DNA from: Gallaecimonas mangrovi
Lineage (GTDB): Bacteria > Pseudomonadota > Gammaproteobacteria > Enterobacterales > Gallaecimonadaceae
Direction of reading: 5' to 3'
DNA: 64,000 nt
Assembly: GCF_003367375.1 (NCBI RefSeq)
Contig: NZ_CP031416.1
Span: forward strand, 1,495,501 to 1,559,500
A program made the translations under genes and the position numbers. The stretch's first letter is position 1, and every line of letters begins with the position of its first letter. The notes beneath the pieces are model-generated. The model searched no databases. It was not told the DNA's origin and saw only the letters and a program-made list of their open reading frames with translations. Below, one piece after another: positions 53,334-64,000 of the stretch.

Positions 53334-55763
53334 TTAAAACTTGTAGTTAGCCTTTATTGACCAACGCAAGCCGTCGATGCTGATGGGGGAGTAGCTCGAA
53401 TAGATTTGGCCATAAGAGCTGCCGTATTTGGACTTGTCGGGGTAGTTGTCAAAGAGGTTTTCAACACTGGCTGTCAGTGAGAAGTCGTCGGTGGCCATCC
53501 AGGTGGCGGCGGTATCTACCATCACTTCCGAACCGAAGGTTTGAATGTCGTAAGAGCCGTCCTCCGAGGTTTTCCACTTACCGTAGTAGCGCACACCAAC
53601 ATCAAACTTATAGACATCGATGCTGTGGGTGATATTGAAGTTAACCCGGGTTTTCGGCAGTTCATTTTCAATGTCTGACTTACGGTCAGCATCGATGACG
53701 GATGCATCGTAAGAGGTGACATCGGTTTTGTTGTAGTTGGCGGCCAACTGGAAGTTGGTGTCGCCTAAATCGGTGTGCAGGTTATAGGTGGTGACCCAGT
53801 CCATACCTTGGGTTTTGGTATCAAAGGCATTGGTAAAGTAGCGCACATAACCGTAGTCAGAAGCGCCTGACACGCCAGAGGCCTCGAGCGATGCTTTATC
53901 GGAGTCGCTCAACTCAAAGTTACTGGACAGGCCAATGCGGTCTCGCACATCGATACGGTAAAAATCCAGGGTGGAGGTCAGGTCAGAGGTAATGGTCCAG
54001 CCGAGGCCAACACTGTAGTTGGTGGATTTTTCCGGTTTCAGTGCTTTGGCACCAAAGTATTTCGCAACATCATTGGTAACTGAAATAGTACCCACTTCCA
54101 CCGGGGTTGAACTGTTATCGTAGAAGGTGGTTGAAACGCTGGTGGTGTGCGTTTGGCCCGGCGTTGGTGCTTTAAAACCGGTGCTGACGGTGCCGCGCAA
54201 CACCAGGGAATCGGTGGCATTGTAACGCAAAGACAACTTGCCATTGCTGGTGTCACCAAAGTCAGAGTAGTGCTCATAGCGGCCCGCTAAACCCACCAAT
54301 AAGGCGTCGCTTGGGTCCCATTCGGTATCAATGTAACCGGCATAGCTGGCGCGGCCCCATTCGCCTGCCTCTTCAGGGGTGATCCCCGGATAGCCGTTAG
54401 AGCCGATGCCAAGCTCGGTGTAGTCGCCTTGCTCCCAGGATGCTTCGTCCCCTTCTTCAATGGTGTAAACCTCATAGCGGTATTCGCTACCAAAGGCGAT
54501 GTTGAAATTGCCAATGGGATAGCTGAAGTCAGCATTCAGGTTTTTCTCGGTTTGCTGCAAGGTACCGGGTTTAAAGTCGGTTGGTGAATCTGGGCCAAGG
54601 GAGGGGTTAACGGTGTTGTGTAAAAAGTATTCGATGCGGTTACGGCCAAAGCTACCCGAAAAGTCGTAGTTAAGGTCGGGCAGTACCGGCAAATTACCTT
54701 TTAACCCCACCACTTGGCTAAAGTCGTAAATATCAGCACCAAAACTGGGGGTAAAGCCGCCTGGGTACCAGTTCTTGTAGCTCCAGGTAGAGCCATCATC
54801 AAGGGTTATGTCATTAAACAAAGTGGCTGTGAGGTTTCGATAATAAAAGGTACCTTCGGTATTGGTATCGGAATAGTTACCAAAGAAATACAGCTGGCGG
54901 TTAGCGTCCATATCAATGGCGCCGTTCCAAATTAGCCGTTTTGATTTATTTCGAGGTGTACCCCACGGAATAGCGGGGTCGGGAACGCCGCTTAACCCTT
55001 CATCGCTGTATTCTTGGGCGACAGGTTGCTGAGTTGCACGGACAGTGCGGTCGCGCTGCGTGACTTCGGTGGCGATATTTAAAAAGCCGGCATCAGAAAG
55101 GGCGGTGCCGTAATCGGCGTCAATCTTCCACTCGTCGCCGTCACCTTTTTTGGTGGAGCCATATTGGGCCTGGGTTTCCCAACCGTTGGTATCACTGCGC
55201 AGCACAAAGTTCATCACCCCGGCAATCGCATCGGAACCGTACTGGGCAGATGCGCCGTCACGCAACACATCCAAGCGGCCAAGGGCAATACTGGGAATAT
55301 TGGAAATGTCGGCGCCTTGCGCGCCTTGGGCTAAAGCGCCCCCGGCTAATTGCACCAATGCCGAGCGGTGATAGCGCTTACCGTTGATCAGCACCAGTGT
55401 TTCGTCGGGGGGGAGCCCCCTTAGGTTAGCTGGCCGCACAAATGAACTGCCATCGGAGATAGGCTGGCTTTGCACGTTGTAGGAGGGCACCAGTTTACGA
55501 ATGATCTCTTGCATATCGTTAGAACTGGGGCTTTGCAGTTGCTGGGCGGAGAAAATATCCACCGGAGCGGCCGAGTCGGCAGCGGTTCGCCCTGCTACCC
55601 GCGAGCCGGTGACCGCAATCACTTCAGTGTTGTCGTCCTTCTTTGCTTTCGTTGATGCATCGTCATCATCGGCGTGGGCAACATTTATATTGCTTAGTGC
55701 CATTAACACTGCAGCAGAGATTAATGTCCGCTGCGCCGTTTTGACTTTATTGTCCTTAGTCAT
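53334..55763 (-). CDS. TonB-dependent outer-membrane receptor, copy 1
   Basis: An 809-residue protein with a long signal peptide (cleavage near AHA, about residue 31), a TonB-box-like TEVIAVTGSRVAGR, the plug domain with LRGLPPDETLVLINGKRY and DVLRDGASAQYGSDAIAGV, and a 22-strand barrel ending in aromatic Phe (ANYKF). This TonB receptor group has wide substrates (peptides, glycans, siderophores); the ligand is not predictable from sequence alone. Strongly similar to copy 2 throughout. Transcription starts from the leader described at 55842-55920. Confidence 0.93.
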   Translation of the reverse strand: MTKDNKVKTAQRTLISAAVLMALSNINVAHADDDDASTKAKKDDNTEVIAVTGSRVAGRTAADSAAPVDIFSAQQLQSPSSNDMQEIIRKLVPSYNVQSQPISDGSSFVRPANLRGLPPDETLVLINGKRYHRSALVQLAGGALAQGAQGADISNIPSIALGRLDVLRDGASAQYGSDAIAGVMNFVLRSDTNGWETQAQYGSTKKGDGDEWKIDADYGTALSDAGFLNIATEVTQRDRTVRATQQPVAQEYSDEGLSGVPDPAIPWGTPRNKSKRLIWNGAIDMDANRQLYFFGNYSDTNTEGTFYYRNLTATLFNDITLDDGSTWSYKNWYPGGFTPSFGADIYDFSQVVGLKGNLPVLPDLNYDFSGSFGRNRIEYFLHNTVNPSLGPDSPTDFKPGTLQQTEKNLNADFSYPIGNFNIAFGSEYRYEVYTIEEGDEASWEQGDYTELGIGSNGYPGITPEEAGEWGRASYAGYIDTEWDPSDALLVGLAGRYEHYSDFGDTSNGKLSLRYNATDSLVLRGTVSTGFKAPTPGQTHTTSVSTTFYDNSSTPVEVGTISVTNDVAKYFGAKALKPEKSTNYSVGLGWTITSDLTSTLDFYRIDVRDRIGLSSNFELSDSDKASLEASGVSGASDYGYVRYFTNAFDTKTQGMDWVTTYNLHTDLGDTNFQLAANYNKTDVTSYDASVIDADRKSDIENELPKTRVNFNITHSIDVYKFDVGVRYYGKWKTSEDGSYDIQTFGSEVMVDTAATWMATDDFSLTASVENLFDNYPDKSKYGSSYGQIYSSYSPISIDGLRWSIKANYKF

Positions 55764-56251: not shown

Positions 56252-58681
56252 TTAAAACTTGTAGTTTGCTCGCAGGAACCAGCGCATACCATCGGTGCTG
56301 ATCGGTGAACTACCCGAGTAAACTTGGCCGGTGCTGGCGCCATACTTGAATTTGTCTGGGTAGTTATCAAACAGGTTTTCTACGCCTGCGGTCATCGAAA
56401 AGTCTGAGGTGGCCATCCAGGTTGCTGAGGTGTCAACCATGAATTCAGAACCAAAGGTCTGATATTGCTCATCAGATGAATATTTCCACTTGCCGTAGTA
56501 ACGCACGCCTAAATCAAACTTGTACACGTCAACGCTGTGGGTCACGTTAAAGTTGACCCGGGTTTTTGGCAGCTGGTTTTCCAAGTCAGACTTACGGTCG
56601 GCATCAACCACACCGGTGTCTTTGATATCGGTTACTTCCGTTTTGTTGTAGTTACCGGCCAGGCTGAAGTTGGTGTCGCCCCAGTCAGAAGACAGGTTAT
56701 AAGTGACAACCAAATCAACCCCTTGGGTGCGGGTATCAAAGGCGTTGGTGAAGAAGCGGATCTGCCCATAGTCACCGGCATTGGATATGCCAGAGGCAAT
56801 TAAGGCGTCACGGGTGTCTTCATCAATGTCGATACTTTGTGACATGCCTATGCGGTCGCGTACATCGATGCGATACACATCTAAGGTTGTGGTTAGGTTA
56901 GGGGTAACGGTCCACCCCAAGCCCAGACTGTAGTTGGTTGATTTTTCAGGGGTAAGGGCTTTACCACCAAAGTATTCGGCAATGGGGTTAGTCGACGGAA
57001 TGGTACCTACCGCCACAGGCGTTGGGTCGTCACCAATAAAGGTGGTTGCAACGTTGATGGTGTGTGACTGACCAGGGGTTGGTGCCCTAAAGCCGGTACT
57101 GACAGTACCGCGTAACACCAAGTTGTCGGTGGCGTTATAGCGGGCTGATAGCTTGCCGTTGGAGGTGCTGCCAAAATCGGAGTAGTTTTCATAACGGCCG
57201 GCGGCGCCCAGCATCAAGTCCATATTGACGTCCCATTCCATATCCACGTAAGCGGAGTAGTTAGAACGTGTCCATTCCCCTGATTGCTCCGGGCTGTAGC
57301 CAGGGAAGCCGTTAGAGCCAATCCCCAAGGACGAGAATTCCCCAATCTCCCAGGAGGCTTCATCGCCAGAGATAATGGCGTAAGTTTCGTCGCGGTATTC
57401 ACCCCCGAAGGCGATATTCAATGAGCCAATAGGGTAGGTGAAATCGGCGTTTACGTTTTTCTCGGTCTGTTGCAGTGTGCCGGGTTTGAAGTTAGTGGGG
57501 GATTCGTTTGCCAGCGACGGGTTGATGGTGTTGTGAATAAAGTACTCGATGCGGTTACGACCGAAGCTTCCTGAGAAGTCGTAGCCCAGTTCGGGGGAGA
57601 TAAAAGGCATGGTGCCTTTGACGCCAACCACTTGGCTAAAGTCATAAATGTTGGCACCAAAAGACGGTTGGAAGCCGCCGGGGAACCAGTCTAAAAAGTT
57701 GAATGTAGAGCCGTCATCCAAGGTGATGTCGGTGAAGAAATCACGGTCGAGGTTACGGTAATAAAATGCCCCTTCGGTGTTGGTATCAGAATAGTTACCA
57801 AACAAATAGAGACTGGCCAGTGGGTTCATATCGATACCGGCATTCCACACTAACCGTTTGGATTTGTTACGAGGCGTACCCCATTTTTGCGCCGGATCCT
57901 GAACGTATGTATTACCCGCATCAATATAGCTTTGGGCGTCAGGGCGCTGATCGGCGCGAACGGTAGCGTCGCGCTGGGTCAGCTCCATACTCAAGTTTAA
58001 AAAACCCTTATCGGTCATTTCGGTGCCGTAGTTCGCAGAGAACTGCCACTCGTCACCATCGCCTTCTTTGGTCGAGCCATATTGCGCCTGAGTTTCCAGG
58101 CCATTGGTATCGCTACGCAGCACAAAGTTCATTACCCCGGCAATCGCATCTGAGCCGTACTGAGCGGATGCACCATCACGCAACACATCTAGGCGGCCAA
58201 GGGCAATGCTGGGAATGTTTGATATATCCGGTGCTTGTGCACCTTGTGCCAGAGAACCACCGGATATTTGCACCAGCGCTGAGCGGTGAAAGCGTTTGCC
58301 GTTAACCAACACCAAGGTTTCATCGGGGGGAAGACCCCGCAGGTTAGCTGGGCGCACAAAAGAGCTACCGTCTGAAATGGGCATGGTTTCAACGTTATAA
58401 GACGGCACCAAGCGGCGAATGACTTCGTTCATGTCATTACTGCTCGGTTGTCTTATCTGTTGGCCAGAGAAAATATCAATCGGTGCGGCCGAGTCGGCAG
58501 CGGTACGGCCGGCCACACGTGAGCCTGTGACTGCAATGACTTCCGTATTGTCATCGCCCTTTGCTTTTGCTTTGGCAGCATCGTCATCGTCAGCAAAAGC
58601 GGAGGCATTACTTAGTGCCATAACAACGGCAAGAGAAAGCAAACTCCGTTTCTGCAACACGACTTTTTTATCTTTAGTCAT
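56252..58681 (-). CDS. TonB-dependent outer-membrane receptor, copy 2
   Basis: An 809-residue paralogue of copy 1, the same length, with signal peptide (cleavage near AFA), the same TEVIAVTGSRVAGR box, plug motifs and the aromatic barrel end ANYKF. The two are close along their whole length, with the differences concentrated in loops of the barrel, as expected if ligand specificity diverged after tandem duplication. It has its own terminator and leader. It is divergent from the flavoprotein operon, 409 bases away from its start codon. Confidence 0.93.
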   Translation of the reverse strand: MTKDKKVVLQKRSLLSLAVVMALSNASAFADDDDAAKAKAKGDDNTEVIAVTGSRVAGRTAADSAAPIDIFSGQQIRQPSSNDMNEVIRRLVPSYNVETMPISDGSSFVRPANLRGLPPDETLVLVNGKRFHRSALVQISGGSLAQGAQAPDISNIPSIALGRLDVLRDGASAQYGSDAIAGVMNFVLRSDTNGLETQAQYGSTKEGDGDEWQFSANYGTEMTDKGFLNLSMELTQRDATVRADQRPDAQSYIDAGNTYVQDPAQKWGTPRNKSKRLVWNAGIDMNPLASLYLFGNYSDTNTEGAFYYRNLDRDFFTDITLDDGSTFNFLDWFPGGFQPSFGANIYDFSQVVGVKGTMPFISPELGYDFSGSFGRNRIEYFIHNTINPSLANESPTNFKPGTLQQTEKNVNADFTYPIGSLNIAFGGEYRDETYAIISGDEASWEIGEFSSLGIGSNGFPGYSPEQSGEWTRSNYSAYVDMEWDVNMDLMLGAAGRYENYSDFGSTSNGKLSARYNATDNLVLRGTVSTGFRAPTPGQSHTINVATTFIGDDPTPVAVGTIPSTNPIAEYFGGKALTPEKSTNYSLGLGWTVTPNLTTTLDVYRIDVRDRIGMSQSIDIDEDTRDALIASGISNAGDYGQIRFFTNAFDTRTQGVDLVVTYNLSSDWGDTNFSLAGNYNKTEVTDIKDTGVVDADRKSDLENQLPKTRVNFNVTHSVDVYKFDLGVRYYGKWKYSSDEQYQTFGSEFMVDTSATWMATSDFSMTAGVENLFDNYPDKFKYGASTGQVYSGSSPISTDGMRWFLRANYKF

Positions 58682-59090: not shown

Positions 59091-60674
59091 ATGACAAAAG
59101 GGCTTTCAAGGAGGCAATTGCTCGGTTTAATCGGGCGTGCCGGAGGAAGTGCAGCGATGTTTCATGCTGCAGGATTGATGGGAATAACTAGCATGTCAGC
59201 GCAAGCGGCACCGCTTAAGTTAAAGCCCCTTACCACTGGAAAAAAACGTTCTGTTGTAATTTTAGGTGCCGGTATTAGTGGGTTAACCTCTGCCTACGAA
59301 TTAAGTCGAGCCGGTTATGATGTTACCGTTTTAGAAGCCTCGCATCGCGCTGGCGGGCGAAATTTTACCGCCCGGCATGGTGATTTTATTGATGAATTTG
59401 GTAACCCCCAAATTTGTAAGTTCGACGATAAACCCTATCTCTACATGAATTGCGGCCCCGCCCGTATTCCTGCGGTACACACCGGTTTGATGCATTATTG
59501 CCGTGAATTGGGAGTGGAATTAATGTTGTTCTCCAACGACAACGTTAATTGCTACACCCAAGACGATAAGGCGTTTGATGGCAGGCCTATTCGCATTCGT
59601 GAATACCGGGCAGACATTCGTGGCTATATGTCTGAGCTGCTCGAAAAAACCATGGCTTCAAGCGCTCACCTTGACGCACCTTTTGACGAGGTTGATCTCG
59701 ATAAAATGGTGCAGTTTGTAAAAGATTACGGCGATTTAGGCTCAGACCTTAAATACCACGGCTCGGAAAGGGCGGGCTTGGTGTCTGGTGGTTTTGTTTC
59801 CGAACCCGTTATTAAAGATCCGCTCCGTTTTGCAGACTTAATGAAATCAAGCTATTGGGCGGGGGCACTGAACTTTGCCGAAGGCCTTGATCAGGCACCG
59901 GCGATGCTAACCCCTGTAGGTGGTATGGATCACGTGGTTAAGGGCTTTCTTAAACACGTTAAAGACAAAATTAGCCTCAAGGCACAAGTGCAAAAAGTGT
60001 GGCTTGAAGACAAAGGCGTTGAGGTTAGCTACCTGCACGACGGTGTGAATAAGAAAATCAAAGCCGATTACTGTATTAACTGTATTCCTACCCACATTAT
60101 GGCGGGCATCGAAAACAACTTCCCCACTGAATACGCCGAGGTTCTGGGCAAAATTCAGCGCGGCAAGCTGTTTAAAATCGGTTTCCAAGCCAAAGAACGT
60201 TTCTGGGAAAAGGAAGGCATTTATAACGGCATTACCTGGACCAGCCAAGATATCAACCAGATTTGGTATCCCGAACACAGCCCAATGCGACCTAAGGGGA
60301 TCTTCCTTGGTGCCTATACCTGGGATCCGGCGGTCGGTGAACGCTTTGCACAAATGAGCAATCAACAGCGCATGAATGAAGCGATTCGCCAGGGTTCAAA
60401 AATCCATCCCGACTATGCCAAGTACGTAGAAACCGGCATTACCGTCTGCTGGGAACGCATGAACAACATGATGGGCTGCAGTTCGCAATGGCCGGAAGAC
60501 ATTCGCGATAAGTTTGCATTACTGCAAGCGCCTGCTGGTAACCGTCATTACATGGTGGGTGACCAAATCAGCCACCATTCCGGTTGGCAAGAAGGAGCTA
60601 TTCGCTCGGCTTGGCACGCTCTTGAAGATATCGAGCAGAAGGAAGGCATGCTCAGTGCCCGGGAGGCATCATGA
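59091..60674 (+). CDS. Tat-exported flavin amine oxidase, L-amino-acid oxidase-like
   Basis: A 527-residue protein. A twin-arginine signal is at the N-terminus (SRRQLLG, residues 6-12, then a hydrophobic stretch ending SAQA). The FAD-binding GAGISG is at 59-64 with LEASHRAGGR after it. Snake-venom-type L-amino-acid oxidase landmarks are seen: GPARIP (Arg125, the carboxylate-binding position), VGGMDHV, IWYPEH (Tyr) and SHHSGWQEGAI (the active-site Trp region), so an alpha-amino acid is the likeliest substrate. The ATG at 59091 follows no strong Shine-Dalgarno; a TTG seven codons earlier is rejected. The stop overlaps the cytochrome start (ATGA). Confidence 0.85.
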   Translation: MTKGLSRRQLLGLIGRAGGSAAMFHAAGLMGITSMSAQAAPLKLKPLTTGKKRSVVILGAGISGLTSAYELSRAGYDVTVLEASHRAGGRNFTARHGDFIDEFGNPQICKFDDKPYLYMNCGPARIPAVHTGLMHYCRELGVELMLFSNDNVNCYTQDDKAFDGRPIRIREYRADIRGYMSELLEKTMASSAHLDAPFDEVDLDKMVQFVKDYGDLGSDLKYHGSERAGLVSGGFVSEPVIKDPLRFADLMKSSYWAGALNFAEGLDQAPAMLTPVGGMDHVVKGFLKHVKDKISLKAQVQKVWLEDKGVEVSYLHDGVNKKIKADYCINCIPTHIMAGIENNFPTEYAEVLGKIQRGKLFKIGFQAKERFWEKEGIYNGITWTSQDINQIWYPEHSPMRPKGIFLGAYTWDPAVGERFAQMSNQQRMNEAIRQGSKIHPDYAKYVETGITVCWERMNNMMGCSSQWPEDIRDKFALLQAPAGNRHYMVGDQISHHSGWQEGAIRSAWHALEDIEQKEGMLSAREAS

Positions 60675-61285
60675 AAAAGTGGTTGATGATGGCGCTGGTA
60701 CTGGCGGCGGCGACGGCCCAAGCCAAGCAGGACAGCTCGCAGTATTGTTTAGTGTGCCACGGCTCCAATGCCGCCAGTAACCCAACTGTTAAAGGGCCTA
60801 ACCTCACCATACTGCCGGCCTGGTATATCAAGGAGCAGTTATTAGGTTTTCAAAAGGGGTGGCGCTCCGGTGGCAAGGGCGATATTCACGGCCATGAAAT
60901 GTTGTCGGTGGCCAAGATAATGAAACCTAAGCAAATTGAAGATGCCATTGCCTTTATTGGTAAGCAGCCAACGAAATCGGCGCCGGTTAAATTGCTCAAG
61001 GCTGACATCAGCCATGGCAAGAGTCTTTATCAAAGCTGCGCCGGTTGCCACGGTGCTAGCGGTGAAGGTATGGCCGCGGTAAAGGCGCCGCCACTGGCGG
61101 GTCAAAGCGACTGGTACATTCTTAAACAATTACAGGCGTACAAGTCCGGCGAAAGGGGTACAGCCAGTGGCGATCAGAACGGTGCCATTATGCGCCAGTC
61201 TGCCATGATGCTGGGGTCGGACAAGGACATGCAGGACGTGTCGGCATTTATTGCCTCACTGCCCGCTCAAAAACCAAAAGGATAA
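60671..61285 (+). CDS. Periplasmic di-haem cytochrome c (c4/c553-like)
   Basis: A 204-residue protein with a signal peptide (ends AQA, residue 18) and two CxxCH haem sites, C26-L-V-C29-H30 and C123-A-G-C126-H127, each followed by a domain with a candidate Met ligand (Met77; a Met in the IMRQSAMML stretch). This two-domain layout is that of cytochrome c4. It begins within the flavoprotein stop codon, and GGGAGG precedes its ATG. The likely role is to accept electrons from the flavoprotein; this is inferred from coupling. Confidence 0.9.
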   Translation: MKKWLMMALVLAAATAQAKQDSSQYCLVCHGSNAASNPTVKGPNLTILPAWYIKEQLLGFQKGWRSGGKGDIHGHEMLSVAKIMKPKQIEDAIAFIGKQPTKSAPVKLLKADISHGKSLYQSCAGCHGASGEGMAAVKAPPLAGQSDWYILKQLQAYKSGERGTASGDQNGAIMRQSAMMLGSDKDMQDVSAFIASLPAQKPKG

Positions 61286-61289
61286 CGTC

Positions 61290-61778
61290 ATGAAAAAAGC
61301 ACTGCTACTGGGTGCCACCCTAATGTTAGCTGCAGGCACGGTGTCTGCTGCCCAAGTGAAACGCTACCCACTGCCTGGTGGCAGCACTTTCCCTATTGCC
61401 TCTGCGGTTGAAGTGGACGGCACCGTCTATCAAAGCGGTATGGTTCCTGCCCCTAAAAACCCCAAGGCGGCCAAAGGCTCAGAAGCCTACTGGGGCGATA
61501 CCCAAGCACAAACCCTAAGTGTGCTGACACGCATTCAGGCATCGCTGAAGGAAAAAGGCTTGGACATGGGGGATGTGGTAAAGATGACGGCCTTTCTGGT
61601 TGGCGACCCGAAACATGGCGGCAAGCTTGATTTCGCGGGCTTTATGAAGAGTTATACCCAGTTCTTTGGCACCAAAGCCCAACCGAATTTACCGGCCCGC
61701 AGTGCGGTGCAGGTAGCGGCACTTGCCGGTGAAGGGATGCTGGTGGAAATTGAAGTGATAGCCGTGCGCCCGAAATGA
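61290..61778 (+). CDS. RidA family protein with signal peptide
   Basis: A 162-residue protein: signal peptide (ends VSA, residue 20) followed by a YjgF/RidA domain with the catalytic Arg in LPARSAVQVAAL (Arg137) and the VYQSGMVP opening. Ordinary RidA is cytosolic and about 128 residues, deaminating 2-imino acids to 2-oxo acids. An exported version next to an amino-acid-oxidase-like flavoprotein fits imine clearance in the periplasm. AAGGAT precedes the ATG at 61290, five bases after the cytochrome stop. Confidence 0.88.
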   Translation: MKKALLLGATLMLAAGTVSAAQVKRYPLPGGSTFPIASAVEVDGTVYQSGMVPAPKNPKAAKGSEAYWGDTQAQTLSVLTRIQASLKEKGLDMGDVVKMTAFLVGDPKHGGKLDFAGFMKSYTQFFGTKAQPNLPARSAVQVAALAGEGMLVEIEVIAVRPK

Positions 61779-61790
61779 AATTTAAGCCAT

Positions 61791-61819
61791 AAAAAAAGGG
61801 GCCTTGGGCCCCCTTTTTG
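61791..61819. terminator. Bidirectional terminator between ridA-like and fadL-like genes
   Basis: Stem AAGGGGCC/GGCCCCTT around TTG with A and T runs, between convergent genes. Confidence 0.85.
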
Positions 61820-61829
61820 CTGGGTGCTA

Positions 61830-63182
61830 TTAGAAGCGGTAGTTACCTTGCACAGACAAAATTTGGGCATGGCCCGACATTTCACCGGTAAAGTTACCGG
61901 TCAAAGAAGGGGAGCCGTCTTCAATAACGGAGCCTTCATCGATGTTGGCCTTTTTGGCATCCAAATAGTTGTAGGCAAAGTCGACATCAAAGTCTTTATT
62001 GAAGCTGTAGGTCATACCCACGCTGTACCAGGTACGGTCGGTGTCTGGAATACGCAGGTTACGATAATCAGCGTTAACCGGGCTTTGGTCATACTTGATA
62101 CCGGCCCTTAAGGTAATGTCGTTGGTGGCGACGTAGGTCAAGCCCACAGCACCATACCAAGTGTCATCCCAGTCTTCGGTTTCATCTAGCAGCTCTGCAC
62201 CAACGGCGCTATTGGCTTCCAGTTTGTCAAACTCTGACCATTCAACACGGTTAATGGATGCTTGCACTGATAACACTTCGTTGATTTTTTGGTTTACGGC
62301 CAATTCCCAAATGGCTGGCAGTGTTAAGTCCACTGAGTCGCCAAAGGAAGAGGGCAGGCTTGCCAAAAAGGCAGCACTGGTGCTGCTGGAGTCTTGAGCA
62401 TAAAGTGCGGCGCCCAAGGTTGGCAGAATACCGGTGTTGATATCACCTTTGATGGTTAAATCCACTTTCGAGCGATACGCAAAGCCCACACGCGTGTCGG
62501 TACTAAAGTCGTAGCTCAAGCCAAAGTTCCAGCCAAAGCCATAATCATCGCCCTTAAGCTCGGTGATCTTTTGACCGGCAAAAGCGGCACCCGGCACGCT
62601 GGAGTCAAGGTTGGTTGGCATCGACGCGTTCAACGTTGCCTTGGCGTAAACCACGTCCAGACCAAAGCCAACAGAGAAACTGTCGTTAACCTTGTAAGCA
62701 ATGCTGGGGTTGAGGTTGTAAGTTTTCAGGTCGGTCTTGTCGGCCAGCGGTGCACTCATTGAGCCGCCATCATAGTCGCTGACCAGGCCAAAGTTAGAGA
62801 AGCCGCCTATCCCCCAGGCCCACTGGTCATTAATGGGCGCTACATAGAAGGCCTCAGGCACAAACTCGTTGGGTGCAACATCATAGGAGTTGCTGGGTAC
62901 GGTTTGGGCACCGGTGGTGAAGTAGTTGGTAACGCTGCCCTGCATGTCGATGTCCGGCATGATGTAAGCACCGGTGATACTGACAATAGGACGGTTAAAT
63001 TGGGTCATCAATGCCGGGTTAGCGGCGACGACGGAACCATCAGCCGCGACGGCGGCTTCACCCGCATTAGCACGCCCCAGTGCTTTTGCTGAGTGTTCAC
63101 TGATCTGGAAACCTGCTGCCATGGCACCAGAGCAGACGCTGAAAATGGCTGTTGCTACGAGTGATTTTCTGACTAACTGCAT
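61830..63182 (-). CDS. FadL/TodX family outer-membrane transport protein
   Basis: A 450-residue barrel with a signal peptide (ends AMAA, about residue 23) and the FadL-type N-terminal hatch (GFQISEHSAKALGRANAGEAA, residues 24-44), followed by NPALMTQF and a C-terminal Phe (GNYRF). The family imports long-chain fatty acids or hydrophobic compounds across the outer membrane. fadE is elsewhere in the window, but no direct link is shown. Confidence 0.92.
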   Translation of the reverse strand: MQLVRKSLVATAIFSVCSGAMAAGFQISEHSAKALGRANAGEAAVAADGSVVAANPALMTQFNRPIVSITGAYIMPDIDMQGSVTNYFTTGAQTVPSNSYDVAPNEFVPEAFYVAPINDQWAWGIGGFSNFGLVSDYDGGSMSAPLADKTDLKTYNLNPSIAYKVNDSFSVGFGLDVVYAKATLNASMPTNLDSSVPGAAFAGQKITELKGDDYGFGWNFGLSYDFSTDTRVGFAYRSKVDLTIKGDINTGILPTLGAALYAQDSSSTSAAFLASLPSSFGDSVDLTLPAIWELAVNQKINEVLSVQASINRVEWSEFDKLEANSAVGAELLDETEDWDDTWYGAVGLTYVATNDITLRAGIKYDQSPVNADYRNLRIPDTDRTWYSVGMTYSFNKDFDVDFAYNYLDAKKANIDEGSVIEDGSPSLTGNFTGEMSGHAQILSVQGNYRF

Positions 63183-63445: not shown

Positions 63446-64000
63446 TCAGGTGGACCAATCGAGGTTTTTTTTCAACTTTGTTTCCATGATGTTAAGGGGC
63501 TCACCCTTCTCGCCGATCAAAATGATTTGGTGGTCACCCATCTGTTCGGTTACGCCGTCGAACTGGCCATCAGCAAATACCGACTTTTCTTTTGCTCCGG
63601 CTTTGACCTTATTTTTGATAATAAAAACCGTTACCCGGCCTTTGCTGCCGGCAAACACGGCATGCAGGCTCTTGACGCCGTTAAAATCGCAGAAGTTAAC
63701 GTAATAAATGTGGCCAATATTGCGGGTGAGGGTGGCCCCATAAACCGCAGACTTACTGTTAAAGGTTGCCAATGTGGCCTTTTCATCCACCGCATCGGTC
63801 ATGGTGCTGTATTCGTGGTAGACGTGGGCGAGGGCATATTGGCTAAAGCCCAGTTGGCCCCTGTCGAGGGTAAAAAAGCTCAGCAGCGTGCCGGCAGTGA
63901 AGGCTAAGGAGGCGGCGATGGCGAGGTGCCAACGGCTCCGGCGTCGCTGGCGCTGCTCAAAGTCTTTGAGGCTTTGATTTAAAATAATGCGGCTTTGAAG
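63446..64000 (-). CDS. DUF3379 family membrane protein (partial, runs off the window)
   Basis: The C-terminal 184 residues are in the window; the frame stays open to position 64000 and an ATG at 63802 is internal. Visible are a basic stretch (FEQRQRRRSRW), one membrane helix (HLAIAASLAFTAGTLLSFF), the ALAHVYHEYSTMTDAVDEKA segment and a beta domain with FCDFNGVKSLHAVF. DUF3379 genes usually follow an ECF sigma factor gene, which would lie beyond the edge. A role as a membrane anti-sigma-like partner is only a guess. Confidence 0.75.
   Translation of the reverse strand, partial: LQSRIILNQSLKDFEQRQRRRSRWHLAIAASLAFTAGTLLSFFTLDRGQLGFSQYALAHVYHEYSTMTDAVDEKATLATFNSKSAVYGATLTRNIGHIYYVNFCDFNGVKSLHAVFAGSKGRVTVFIIKNKVKAGAKEKSVFADGQFDGVTEQMGDHQIILIGEKGEPLNIMETKLKKNLDWST

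What the first reader, a model, noticed from the sequence alone, without database searches (positions are those of the whole stretch)
59091..61778. Candidate periplasmic amino-acid deaminating module: Tat flavoprotein, di-haem cytochrome c and exported RidA
The sequence shows a three-gene operon with coupled starts (ATGA overlap, then a 4-base gap). All three products carry export signals: Tat (SRRQLLG), Sec (cytochrome, two CxxCH) and Sec (RidA domain). The flavoprotein keeps L-amino-acid-oxidase landmarks (GPARIP Arg125, the Trp region in HHSGWQEG). Family knowledge: such oxidases make 2-imino acids and RidA hydrolyses them. The inference is that electrons go to the cytochrome rather than oxygen, which avoids peroxide, and that an exported RidA protects the periplasm from reactive imines. 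A RidA with a signal peptide is unusual.
Basis: partly seen in the sequence, partly recalled or inferred. Interest (0 to 1): 0.75.

Follow-up and report, generated by a model that had tools for sequence, protein, structure and literature searches.

The report
Exported amino-acid deamination operon
Three linked genes encode an exported amino-acid-oxidising flavin enzyme, a two-haem cytochrome and an exported imine-hydrolysing protein, a set already glimpsed in one plant bacterium and found here in several bacterial groups, with enzyme and imine hydrolase sent to the same cell compartment wherever both could be read.

Summary
The flavoprotein is closest to Rhodococcus L-amino acid oxidase, the cytochrome to cytochrome c4, the third protein to subfamily Rid3 (not RidA). 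The set is not accidental: of 398 Pseudomonadota genomes, 25 hold a Rid3-like gene, and 24 of these 25 carry the flavoprotein in the same cluster; 22 of those 24 Rids have signal peptides. An exported Rid is the rule here. In one Pseudomonas clade the Tat signal looks decayed and the Rid has no signal either. Two cytochrome families that barely resemble each other accompany two separate flavoprotein clades. Partner genes (a TonB receptor; TatA in Bacillota) fit export. The kind is known: Gluconacetobacter lao-cccA-ridA (2016) and cytochrome-using flavin amine dehydrogenases (2025). New, as far as I searched: the di-haem version, its receptor, and compartment matching. Electron transfer to the cytochrome is inferred, not shown. 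Against a simple respiratory route: the only haem-copper oxidase found in this genome is a quinol oxidase.

The parts
59091..60674 (+). [quoted passage not shown]
   Evidence: Pfam PF01593; best PDB sequence match 2jae E 3e-75 and best fold match 2jae, TM 0.8-0.9
60671..61285 (+). Sec-exported di-haem cytochrome c, cytochrome c4 fold, 204 aa
   Evidence: Pfam PF00034; c4 best in PDB by sequence and by fold; both CxxCH invariant in 20 aligned sequences
61290..61778 (+). Sec-exported Rid3-type imine deaminase, 162 aa
   Evidence: PF01042; 9bkc PFL1385 E 9e-32 and 9bka PSPTO3006 E 1e-31 against 8e-11 for the next match
61798..61812 (+). terminator-like hairpin after the Rid gene
   Evidence: pattern match only
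56252..58681 (-). TonB-dependent receptor, divergent neighbour; homologues adjoin the operon in 19 of 20 di-haem loci (the window counted)
   Evidence: Pfam; neighbourhoods; only 3 close copies of this type in the genome
53334..55763 (-). second TonB-dependent receptor, 73% identical to the first

Best explanation
A periplasmic amino-acid (or amino-acid-like) deamination unit. The folded FAD enzyme is exported by Tat and oxidises the substrate to a 2-imino acid. Its reduced flavin is re-oxidised by the co-encoded di-haem c4-type cytochrome rather than mainly by O2. The exported Rid3 protein speeds hydrolysis of the imine to keto acid and ammonium in the same compartment. A TonB-dependent receptor of a particular type probably brings the substrate across the outer membrane. 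Shown here: gene order, export signals, family membership, conservation of the set, compartment matching, two cytochrome families in the same kind of operon. Inferred: substrate class, cytochrome as acceptor, Rid acting on this enzyme's product, the receptor's cargo.
For: Export signals on all three. L-amino acid oxidase branch, with Arg125 and Trp499 kept. Rid3 with the catalytic Arg (R137), Glu and the Rid3 Ile (I36) (criteria from passages of PMC4433059). Published: Rid3 proteins PFL_1385 and PSPTO_3006 hydrolyse imines from an L-amino acid oxidase (PMC5619798, passages). Rid-first survey: 24 of 25 genomes have the flavoprotein in the cluster, with a cytochrome in 17 of those 24. Two cytochrome families (best mutual E 8e-6) go with separate flavoprotein clades; on the tree three cytochrome states need only 3 changes. 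D. shibae plasmid: cytochrome oxidase subunit I, two further genes, flavoprotein, cytochrome c. TatA after the Rid in 8 of 8 Bacillota loci and in a Metabacillus plasmid. Published genetics on a homologous operon: insertions in lao abolish indole acetate in G. diazotrophicus, and cytochrome c maturation mutants are cited as making only 5% (PMC5053998).
Against: No biochemistry. 40 of 80 close homologues show no cytochrome of either family in the stretch held, so the enzyme family can probably work without one; in the Rid-first set 7 of 24 have none. The window's genome has one COX1-family gene and it is CyoB, a quinol oxidase, so the reduced cytochrome has no haem-copper cytochrome c oxidase to feed; the near relatives G001 and G003 have in addition COX1 genes of the size of cytochrome c oxidases, but another di-haem genome (G935) also shows only one, of 703 codons. 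The TonB receptor suggests a substrate that porins do not pass well, which fits free amino acids poorly. Signal peptides were called by simple scripts and by eye, not by SignalP.
Confidence: 0.66

Rival explanations
1. The flavoprotein is a periplasmic oxidase that uses O2 and makes peroxide; the cytochrome serves elsewhere, for instance handing electrons to a cytochrome c peroxidase that removes the peroxide.
For: 40 of 80 homologues show no cytochrome. This genome shows no haem-copper cytochrome c oxidase but three CCP/MauG-family genes, each with two CxxCH. Most Tat-bearing, cytochrome-less amine oxidases tested in PMC12224317 were O2 oxidases (passages).
Against: The cytochrome gene overlaps the flavoprotein gene by 4 bases, and a second, very different cytochrome family takes the same place in another clade. 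PMC12224317 found Tat signal plus operonic cytochrome c a good predictor of dehydrogenases, in other clades of the superfamily.
Confidence: 0.2
2. The substrate is not a free amino acid but another primary amine or amino acid derivative imported by the TonB receptor; the same chemistry otherwise.
For: A TonB receptor of one type adjoins 19 of 20 di-haem loci, the window counted, has only 3 close copies in this genome, and lies between flavoprotein and Rid in two other genomes.
Against: Nearest solved relative is an L-amino acid oxidase with Arg125 and Trp499 kept. The homologous lao of G. diazotrophicus acts in tryptophan use (PMC5053998).
Confidence: 0.25
3. The three genes are neighbours by chance.
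For: None found.
Against: Order and strand kept in several phyla; Rid-first sampling gives 24 of 25.
Confidence: 0.01

Closest known systems
Gluconacetobacter diazotrophicus lao-cccA-ridA operon (PMC5053998, 2016)
   Same: Same order and three protein kinds; Tat-signal L-amino acid oxidase; the authors already propose that cytochrome c and RidA assist the oxidase.
   Different: Acetic-acid-bacterial relatives seen here (Komagataeibacter, Acetobacter) carry a mono-haem cytochrome of another family. The passages and part 1 of 2 of the results that I read describe a signal on the oxidase, not on the Rid or the cytochrome, and no TonB receptor.
Cytochrome c-using flavin amine dehydrogenases: NicA2/CycN, Pnao and relatives (PMC9396064, PMC12224317)
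   Same: FAD amine oxidoreductase with Tat signal plus Sec cytochrome c in one operon.
   Different: Found by similarity to NicA2; the terms L-amino acid and RidA do not occur in the main text of PMC12224317. Here the best matches are L-amino acid oxidases, and a Rid is part of the set.
Rid3 proteins PFL_1385 and PSPTO_3006 (PMC5619798; PDB 9bkc, 9bka)
   Same: Closest solved relatives of the Rid; the 9bkc chain also starts with a signal-like stretch.
   Different: The paper's main text has no occurrence of 'signal'. PSPTO_3006-like proteins in the Pseudomonas sample lack a signal and sit beside a flavoprotein with a decayed-looking Tat signal.
Chlamydomonas periplasmic LAO1 with LAO2/RIDA (PMC10805672; a similar complex is cited in PMC5053998)
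   Same: Extracytoplasmic L-amino acid oxidase paired with a Rid-type protein.
   Different: Eukaryote; makes peroxide; no cytochrome in the cluster as described in the passages read.
Flavocytochrome c sulfide dehydrogenase (1fcd, 3vrd)
   Same: An FAD protein with a di-haem cytochrome subunit (recalled); that subunit is a fold match of this cytochrome.
   Different: Different flavoprotein and substrate; resemblance of the cytochrome fold only.
Pseudomonas dadA-dadX-dadY (PMC9714295)
   Same: FAD amino acid dehydrogenase with its own Rid.
   Different: D-alanine, Rid2; 'periplasm' does not occur in the main text.

Membership tests
L-amino acid oxidase branch of flavin amine oxidoreductases | Amino_oxidase fold, FAD Rossmann motif, best similarity to L-amino acid oxidases, Arg125 kept | tested here: met
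   (that this Arg binds the carboxylate is recalled, not from a call)
L-amino acid oxidase branch of flavin amine oxidoreductases | Activity on L-amino acids | not testable with these tools
   needs purified enzyme
Cytochrome c-using flavin amine dehydrogenases | Tat signal on the flavoprotein and Sec cytochrome c in the operon | tested here: met
   criteria from PMC12224317
Cytochrome c-using flavin amine dehydrogenases | Slow with O2, fast with its cytochrome | not testable with these tools
   kinetics
Cytochrome c-using flavin amine dehydrogenases | Place in clades 1-3 of the NicA2-based tree | not tested
   NicA2 and Pnao sequences were not in hand; the 60 of 113 PDB matches shown do not name them
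Rid3 subfamily | Catalytic Arg and Glu kept, the RidA Tyr replaced by Ile | tested here: met
   alignments (I36, R137, conserved Glu); criteria from PMC4433059
Rid3 subfamily | Closest to known Rid3 members | tested here: met
   two Rid3 proteins at E about 1e-31, next match 8e-11
RidA subfamily | Conserved Tyr and nearest similarity to RidA | tested here: not met
   (TIGR00004 60.6 bits, cut-off 106.25)
Cytochrome c4 | Two class I haem domains, c4 fold | tested here: met
   (TM 0.63-0.69 by query length, 25-28% identity)
lao-cccA-ridA operon | Order oxidase-cytochrome c-Rid on one strand | tested here: met
   order of PMC5053998
lao-cccA-ridA operon | Same cytochrome family | tested here: inconclusive
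   di-haem and mono-haem families differ, but Komagataeibacter/Acetobacter loci stand in for G. diazotrophicus, whose own sequence was not fetched

The most novel reading that the evidence does not exclude
The imine hydrolase follows the oxidase to whichever compartment it works in, and in this organism, which seems to lack a cytochrome c oxidase, electrons taken from amino acids in the periplasm are spent by di-haem cytochrome c peroxidases, so that amino acids fuel removal of peroxide outside the cytoplasm.
Probability: 0.1. Interest if true: 0.75.

Novelty: new variant of a known kind. Interest (0 to 1): 0.52.

Why it matters
The Rid papers opened here treat imine damage and its hydrolysis without regard to compartment in the parts read, and PMC4433059 (2015) says that nothing is known of the in vivo substrates of Rid1 to Rid3. 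Here a large group of Rid3 proteins is tied to one enzyme and to a place outside the cytosol, giving Rid3 a concrete candidate role. The same operons give a natural series (no cytochrome, mono-haem, di-haem, cytosolic) in which the switch between oxidase and dehydrogenase in L-amino acid oxidases can be tested. They are also candidate sources of keto acids, or of auxin from tryptophan, outside the cell.

Tried and rejected
Chance neighbourhood: rejected by the flavoprotein-first and Rid-first surveys. RidA membership: rejected for Rid3. Chitin oxidation (ong) cluster of Pseudoalteromonas, which also has a TonB receptor and a Rid: passages read; its deaminase is a PLP enzyme placed in the cytoplasm and its Rid is 127 aa, so it is another system. 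Third copy of the TonB receptor in the genome: no flavoprotein or Rid among the ORFs listed beside it (judged by eye). Automatic charge counting of Tat signals used misaligned windows; replaced by an alignment-based count; the counts are not used. The first signal-peptide script made false calls inside the Rid core; replaced. For four loci (L044, L074, L076, L085) the Rid signal was set by hand and found again by the script. The first cytochrome count (39 of 80) looked only between flavoprotein and Rid, or 1.5 kb downstream if no Rid; on checking it missed two loci (L044, L052) and counted one false match (L058), and the tree labels were corrected (3 changes instead of the 5). A test of joint loss of both signals had no power: only one independent event. 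I did not place the enzyme on the NicA2 tree (no sequences in hand).
Full report
What is there. The three genes lie exactly where the finding puts them: flavoprotein 59091-60674, cytochrome 60671-61285, Rid 61290-61778, all on the + strand, with an ATGA overlap and a 4-base gap. The flavoprotein opens with a twin-arginine signal (SRRQLLG); the other two open with ordinary Sec-type signals, read directly from the sequence. Pfam gives Amino_oxidase, Cytochrom_C and Ribonuc_L-PSP. None of the NCBIfam models shown reaches its cut-off (25 of 80 shown for the flavoprotein, all for the other two).

Identity of the parts. The flavoprotein's best solved relative is the L-amino acid oxidase of Rhodococcus opacus, by sequence (2jae, E 3e-75, 36% of 458 aligned residues) and by predicted fold (mean pLDDT 82, TM 0.8-0.9). 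Specificity cannot be read off. The cytochrome has two CxxCH motifs, invariant in 20 aligned sequences, and matches cytochrome c4 by sequence and fold (mean pLDDT 87); haem subunits of flavocytochrome c sulfide dehydrogenase are also among the fold matches. The third protein is not RidA: its best solved relatives are PFL1385 and PSPTO3006 (E about 1e-31; the next match is 8e-11), both assigned to Rid3 in PMC5619798. It keeps the catalytic Arg (R137) and Glu and has the Ile (I36) that PMC4433059 gives as the mark of Rid3.

Does the set travel together? (a) Flavoprotein first, biased to the 80 closest loci of the genome collection: a Rid lies downstream on the same strand in 47 of 80; 46 of these Rids have a signal peptide and one (L046) is unreadable. 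A cytochrome c of one of two families lies in the cluster in 40 of 80: 18 di-haem (one damaged, L046; in L052 after the Rid, in L044 about 3.7 kb further on) and 22 mono-haem (as corrected). Flavoprotein, cytochrome and Rid occur together in 32 of 80, L046 counted. Of the 33 loci without Rid, four have under 1000 bases of downstream sequence. (b) Flavoprotein in 369 genomes of the class: 6 hold one at E 1e-25 or better, the own genome included; of the other five, two have the trio, two flavoprotein and Rid, one neither. In the genus, 3 of 5 genomes hold it, each with the trio. (c) Rid first: 25 of 398 Pseudomonadota genomes hold a Rid at E 1e-15 or better, and in 24 of the 25 a flavoprotein of this family lies in the same cluster and strand; the exception (G702) has a shortened Rid gene and no flavoprotein in the 12 kb looked at. 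In 17 of the 24 there is also a cytochrome, and in 22 of 24 the Rid has a signal peptide. In one genome (L227) the order is reversed (receptor-Rid-cytochrome-flavoprotein).

Export is the rule. Outside Pseudomonas, 72 of 113 flavoprotein loci have a Rid next downstream, and 71 of these have a signal peptide (the other, L046, is unreadable; the 113 pool all three samples and eight plasmid loci, so they are not a random sample). Some look like lipoproteins (L150, L160, L162, L168). The signals span Pseudomonadota, Cyanobacteriota and Bacillota. They were called by a hydrophobicity script and by eye, not by SignalP. In Bacillota, where no cytochrome was seen, a TatA gene follows the Rid in 8 of 8 loci, with TatC within 5 kb in 5 of 8; a Metabacillus plasmid reads flavoprotein - Rid hydrolase - tatA - tatC in its public annotation. 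A linked Tat component is independent support for export of the flavoprotein.

A natural control. In Pseudomonas, 38 of 149 genomes hold the Rid, 40 places in all. Of the 39 places examined, 35 have the flavoprotein beside it on the same strand; the gap between them (at most about 250 bases to the Rid core) is too short for a cytochrome gene. Twenty of the 35 have an exported Rid and a clean Tat signal. Fourteen have a Rid without any signal, and in all fourteen the flavoprotein's Tat stretch carries two or more charged residues where exported Pseudomonas forms have none or one. One (L210) has an unreadable flavoprotein N-terminus. A fifteenth charged/no-signal case (L165) comes from sample (c). 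Outside Pseudomonas one exported locus (L089) also has charged residues there, so the charge count is not a perfect marker. On the tree the two changes fall on the same single branch: this is one event, a telling example and not a statistic. PSPTO_3006, a biochemically studied Rid3, resembles the cytosolic form and PFL_1385 the exported one.

Two cytochromes. On a tree of 113 flavoproteins the di-haem loci fall in one fully supported group of 25 rows; 23 of the 25 have the di-haem family, and the other two are L048 and L043, whose stretch ends early. Mono-haem loci lie elsewhere on the tree. With corrected labels the three states (none, mono, di) need 3 changes; the first labels gave 5. The root is not inferred, so gain and loss cannot be told apart. 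The two families barely recognise each other (best E 8e-6, around the haem motif), so the slot was filled at least twice or the cytochrome was exchanged; either argues that a cytochrome works with this enzyme. A Dinoroseobacter shibae plasmid places the flavoprotein and its cytochrome directly after cytochrome oxidase genes; D. radiodurans has a cytochrome of the mono-haem family upstream and no Rid in the stretch shown.

The receptor. In 19 of 20 di-haem loci, the window counted, a TonB-dependent receptor homologous to window 56252-58681 lies beside the operon (E 2e-98 or better). The own genome has three receptors of this type (67-100% identical), two of them here; the next match falls to E 9e-25. 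In two other genomes the receptor lies between flavoprotein and Rid. This points to a substrate imported across the outer membrane and is a reason to doubt that free amino acids are the only substrate.

Evidence against the simple respiratory picture. The window's genome (one contig, 100% complete) shows a single COX1-family gene, and it is CyoB in what looks by eye like a cyoABCDE cluster. The close relatives G001 and G003 have in addition COX1 genes of 539-541 codons, the size of a cytochrome c oxidase subunit (judged by length only). Another di-haem genome, G935, also shows only one COX1 gene, of 703 codons. So the operon survives here without a haem-copper cytochrome c oxidase. A cytochrome c1 gene is present, with ORFs that look like Rieske protein and cytochrome b beside it (by eye), and so are three CCP/MauG-family genes with two CxxCH each. 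Where the electrons go in this species is open.

What is known. A gene cluster of the same order, lao-cccA-ridA, was found by transposon mutagenesis in Gluconacetobacter diazotrophicus. Mutants lose indole acetate, the oxidase has a Tat signal, cytochrome c maturation mutants are cited as making 5% of wild-type auxin, and the authors suggest that cytochrome and RidA help the oxidase (PMC5053998; passages and part 1 of 2 of the results). Clustering of Rid3 with amine oxidase genes was reported in PMC4433059 (passages; signal, periplasm and cytochrome do not occur in its main text). Rid3 activity on imines from an L-amino acid oxidase is in PMC5619798 (passages and one section; 'signal' does not occur). 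Flavin amine enzymes that use a cytochrome c and are marked by Tat signal plus operonic cytochrome are in PMC12224317 and PMC9396064 (passages). Chlamydomonas has a periplasmic L-amino acid oxidase with a Rid-type partner (PMC10805672, passages). In the listings (titles and starts of abstracts), and in the parts of papers that I opened, I saw no description of exported bacterial Rid proteins or of compartment matching; the library holds open-licence papers only.

Verdict. A real, conserved and exported deamination unit. The window's copy is a di-haem, receptor-linked variant of a known operon kind. The mechanism is well supported at the level of parts and place, and inferred for electron flow and substrate.

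Noticed in passing
G000:C1:2048757-2050103 (L229): The only COX1-family gene found in the genome is cyoB; congeners G001 and G003 have additional, shorter COX1 genes. The species seems to have lost cytochrome c oxidases while keeping a cytochrome c1 gene and CCP/MauG-family genes.
   Followed up: partly
G000:C1:3647704-3648411 (L171, L186): A second Rid-family gene of this genome also encodes a signal peptide (MSIKTLIFAALVGTFAISATASA), near another Rid-like gene and a protein with a Tat-like start; no L-amino acid oxidase was recognised among the ORFs listed there.
   Followed up: partly
window 53334-55763 and 56252-58681: Two tandem TonB-dependent receptors 73% identical to each other; a third copy (67%) lies at G000:C1:728812 without related neighbours in the 16 kb looked at.
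   Followed up: partly
L063, L065, L068-L072, L077, L082, L084, L090, L091, L099: A group of gammaproteobacterial flavoproteins (Woeseiaceae and kin), several with a Tat start and all with a lipobox-like Cys before the FAD motif, without Rid or cytochrome: possibly membrane-anchored forms.
   Followed up: no
L227 (G555:C5): One genome carries two flavoprotein-cytochrome pairs on opposite strands (one flavoprotein cut by the edge of the stretch), two Rid genes and a TonB receptor within 10 kb.
   Followed up: no
L179 (Metabacillus plasmid NZ_OK052578.1): Flavoprotein-Rid-tatA-tatC on a plasmid, with a gene annotated as a subclass B1 metallo-beta-lactamase about 2 kb upstream.
   Followed up: no
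window 61830-63182 and 63446-64000: A FadL-type outer membrane protein and a DUF3379 protein follow on the opposite strand; a FadL homologue also adjoins the operon in the two congeners that have it.
   Followed up: no
L188, L222, L223, L224: Four Pseudomonas Rid places without a flavoprotein in the 4.5 kb fetched; L188 encodes an exported Rid.
   Followed up: no
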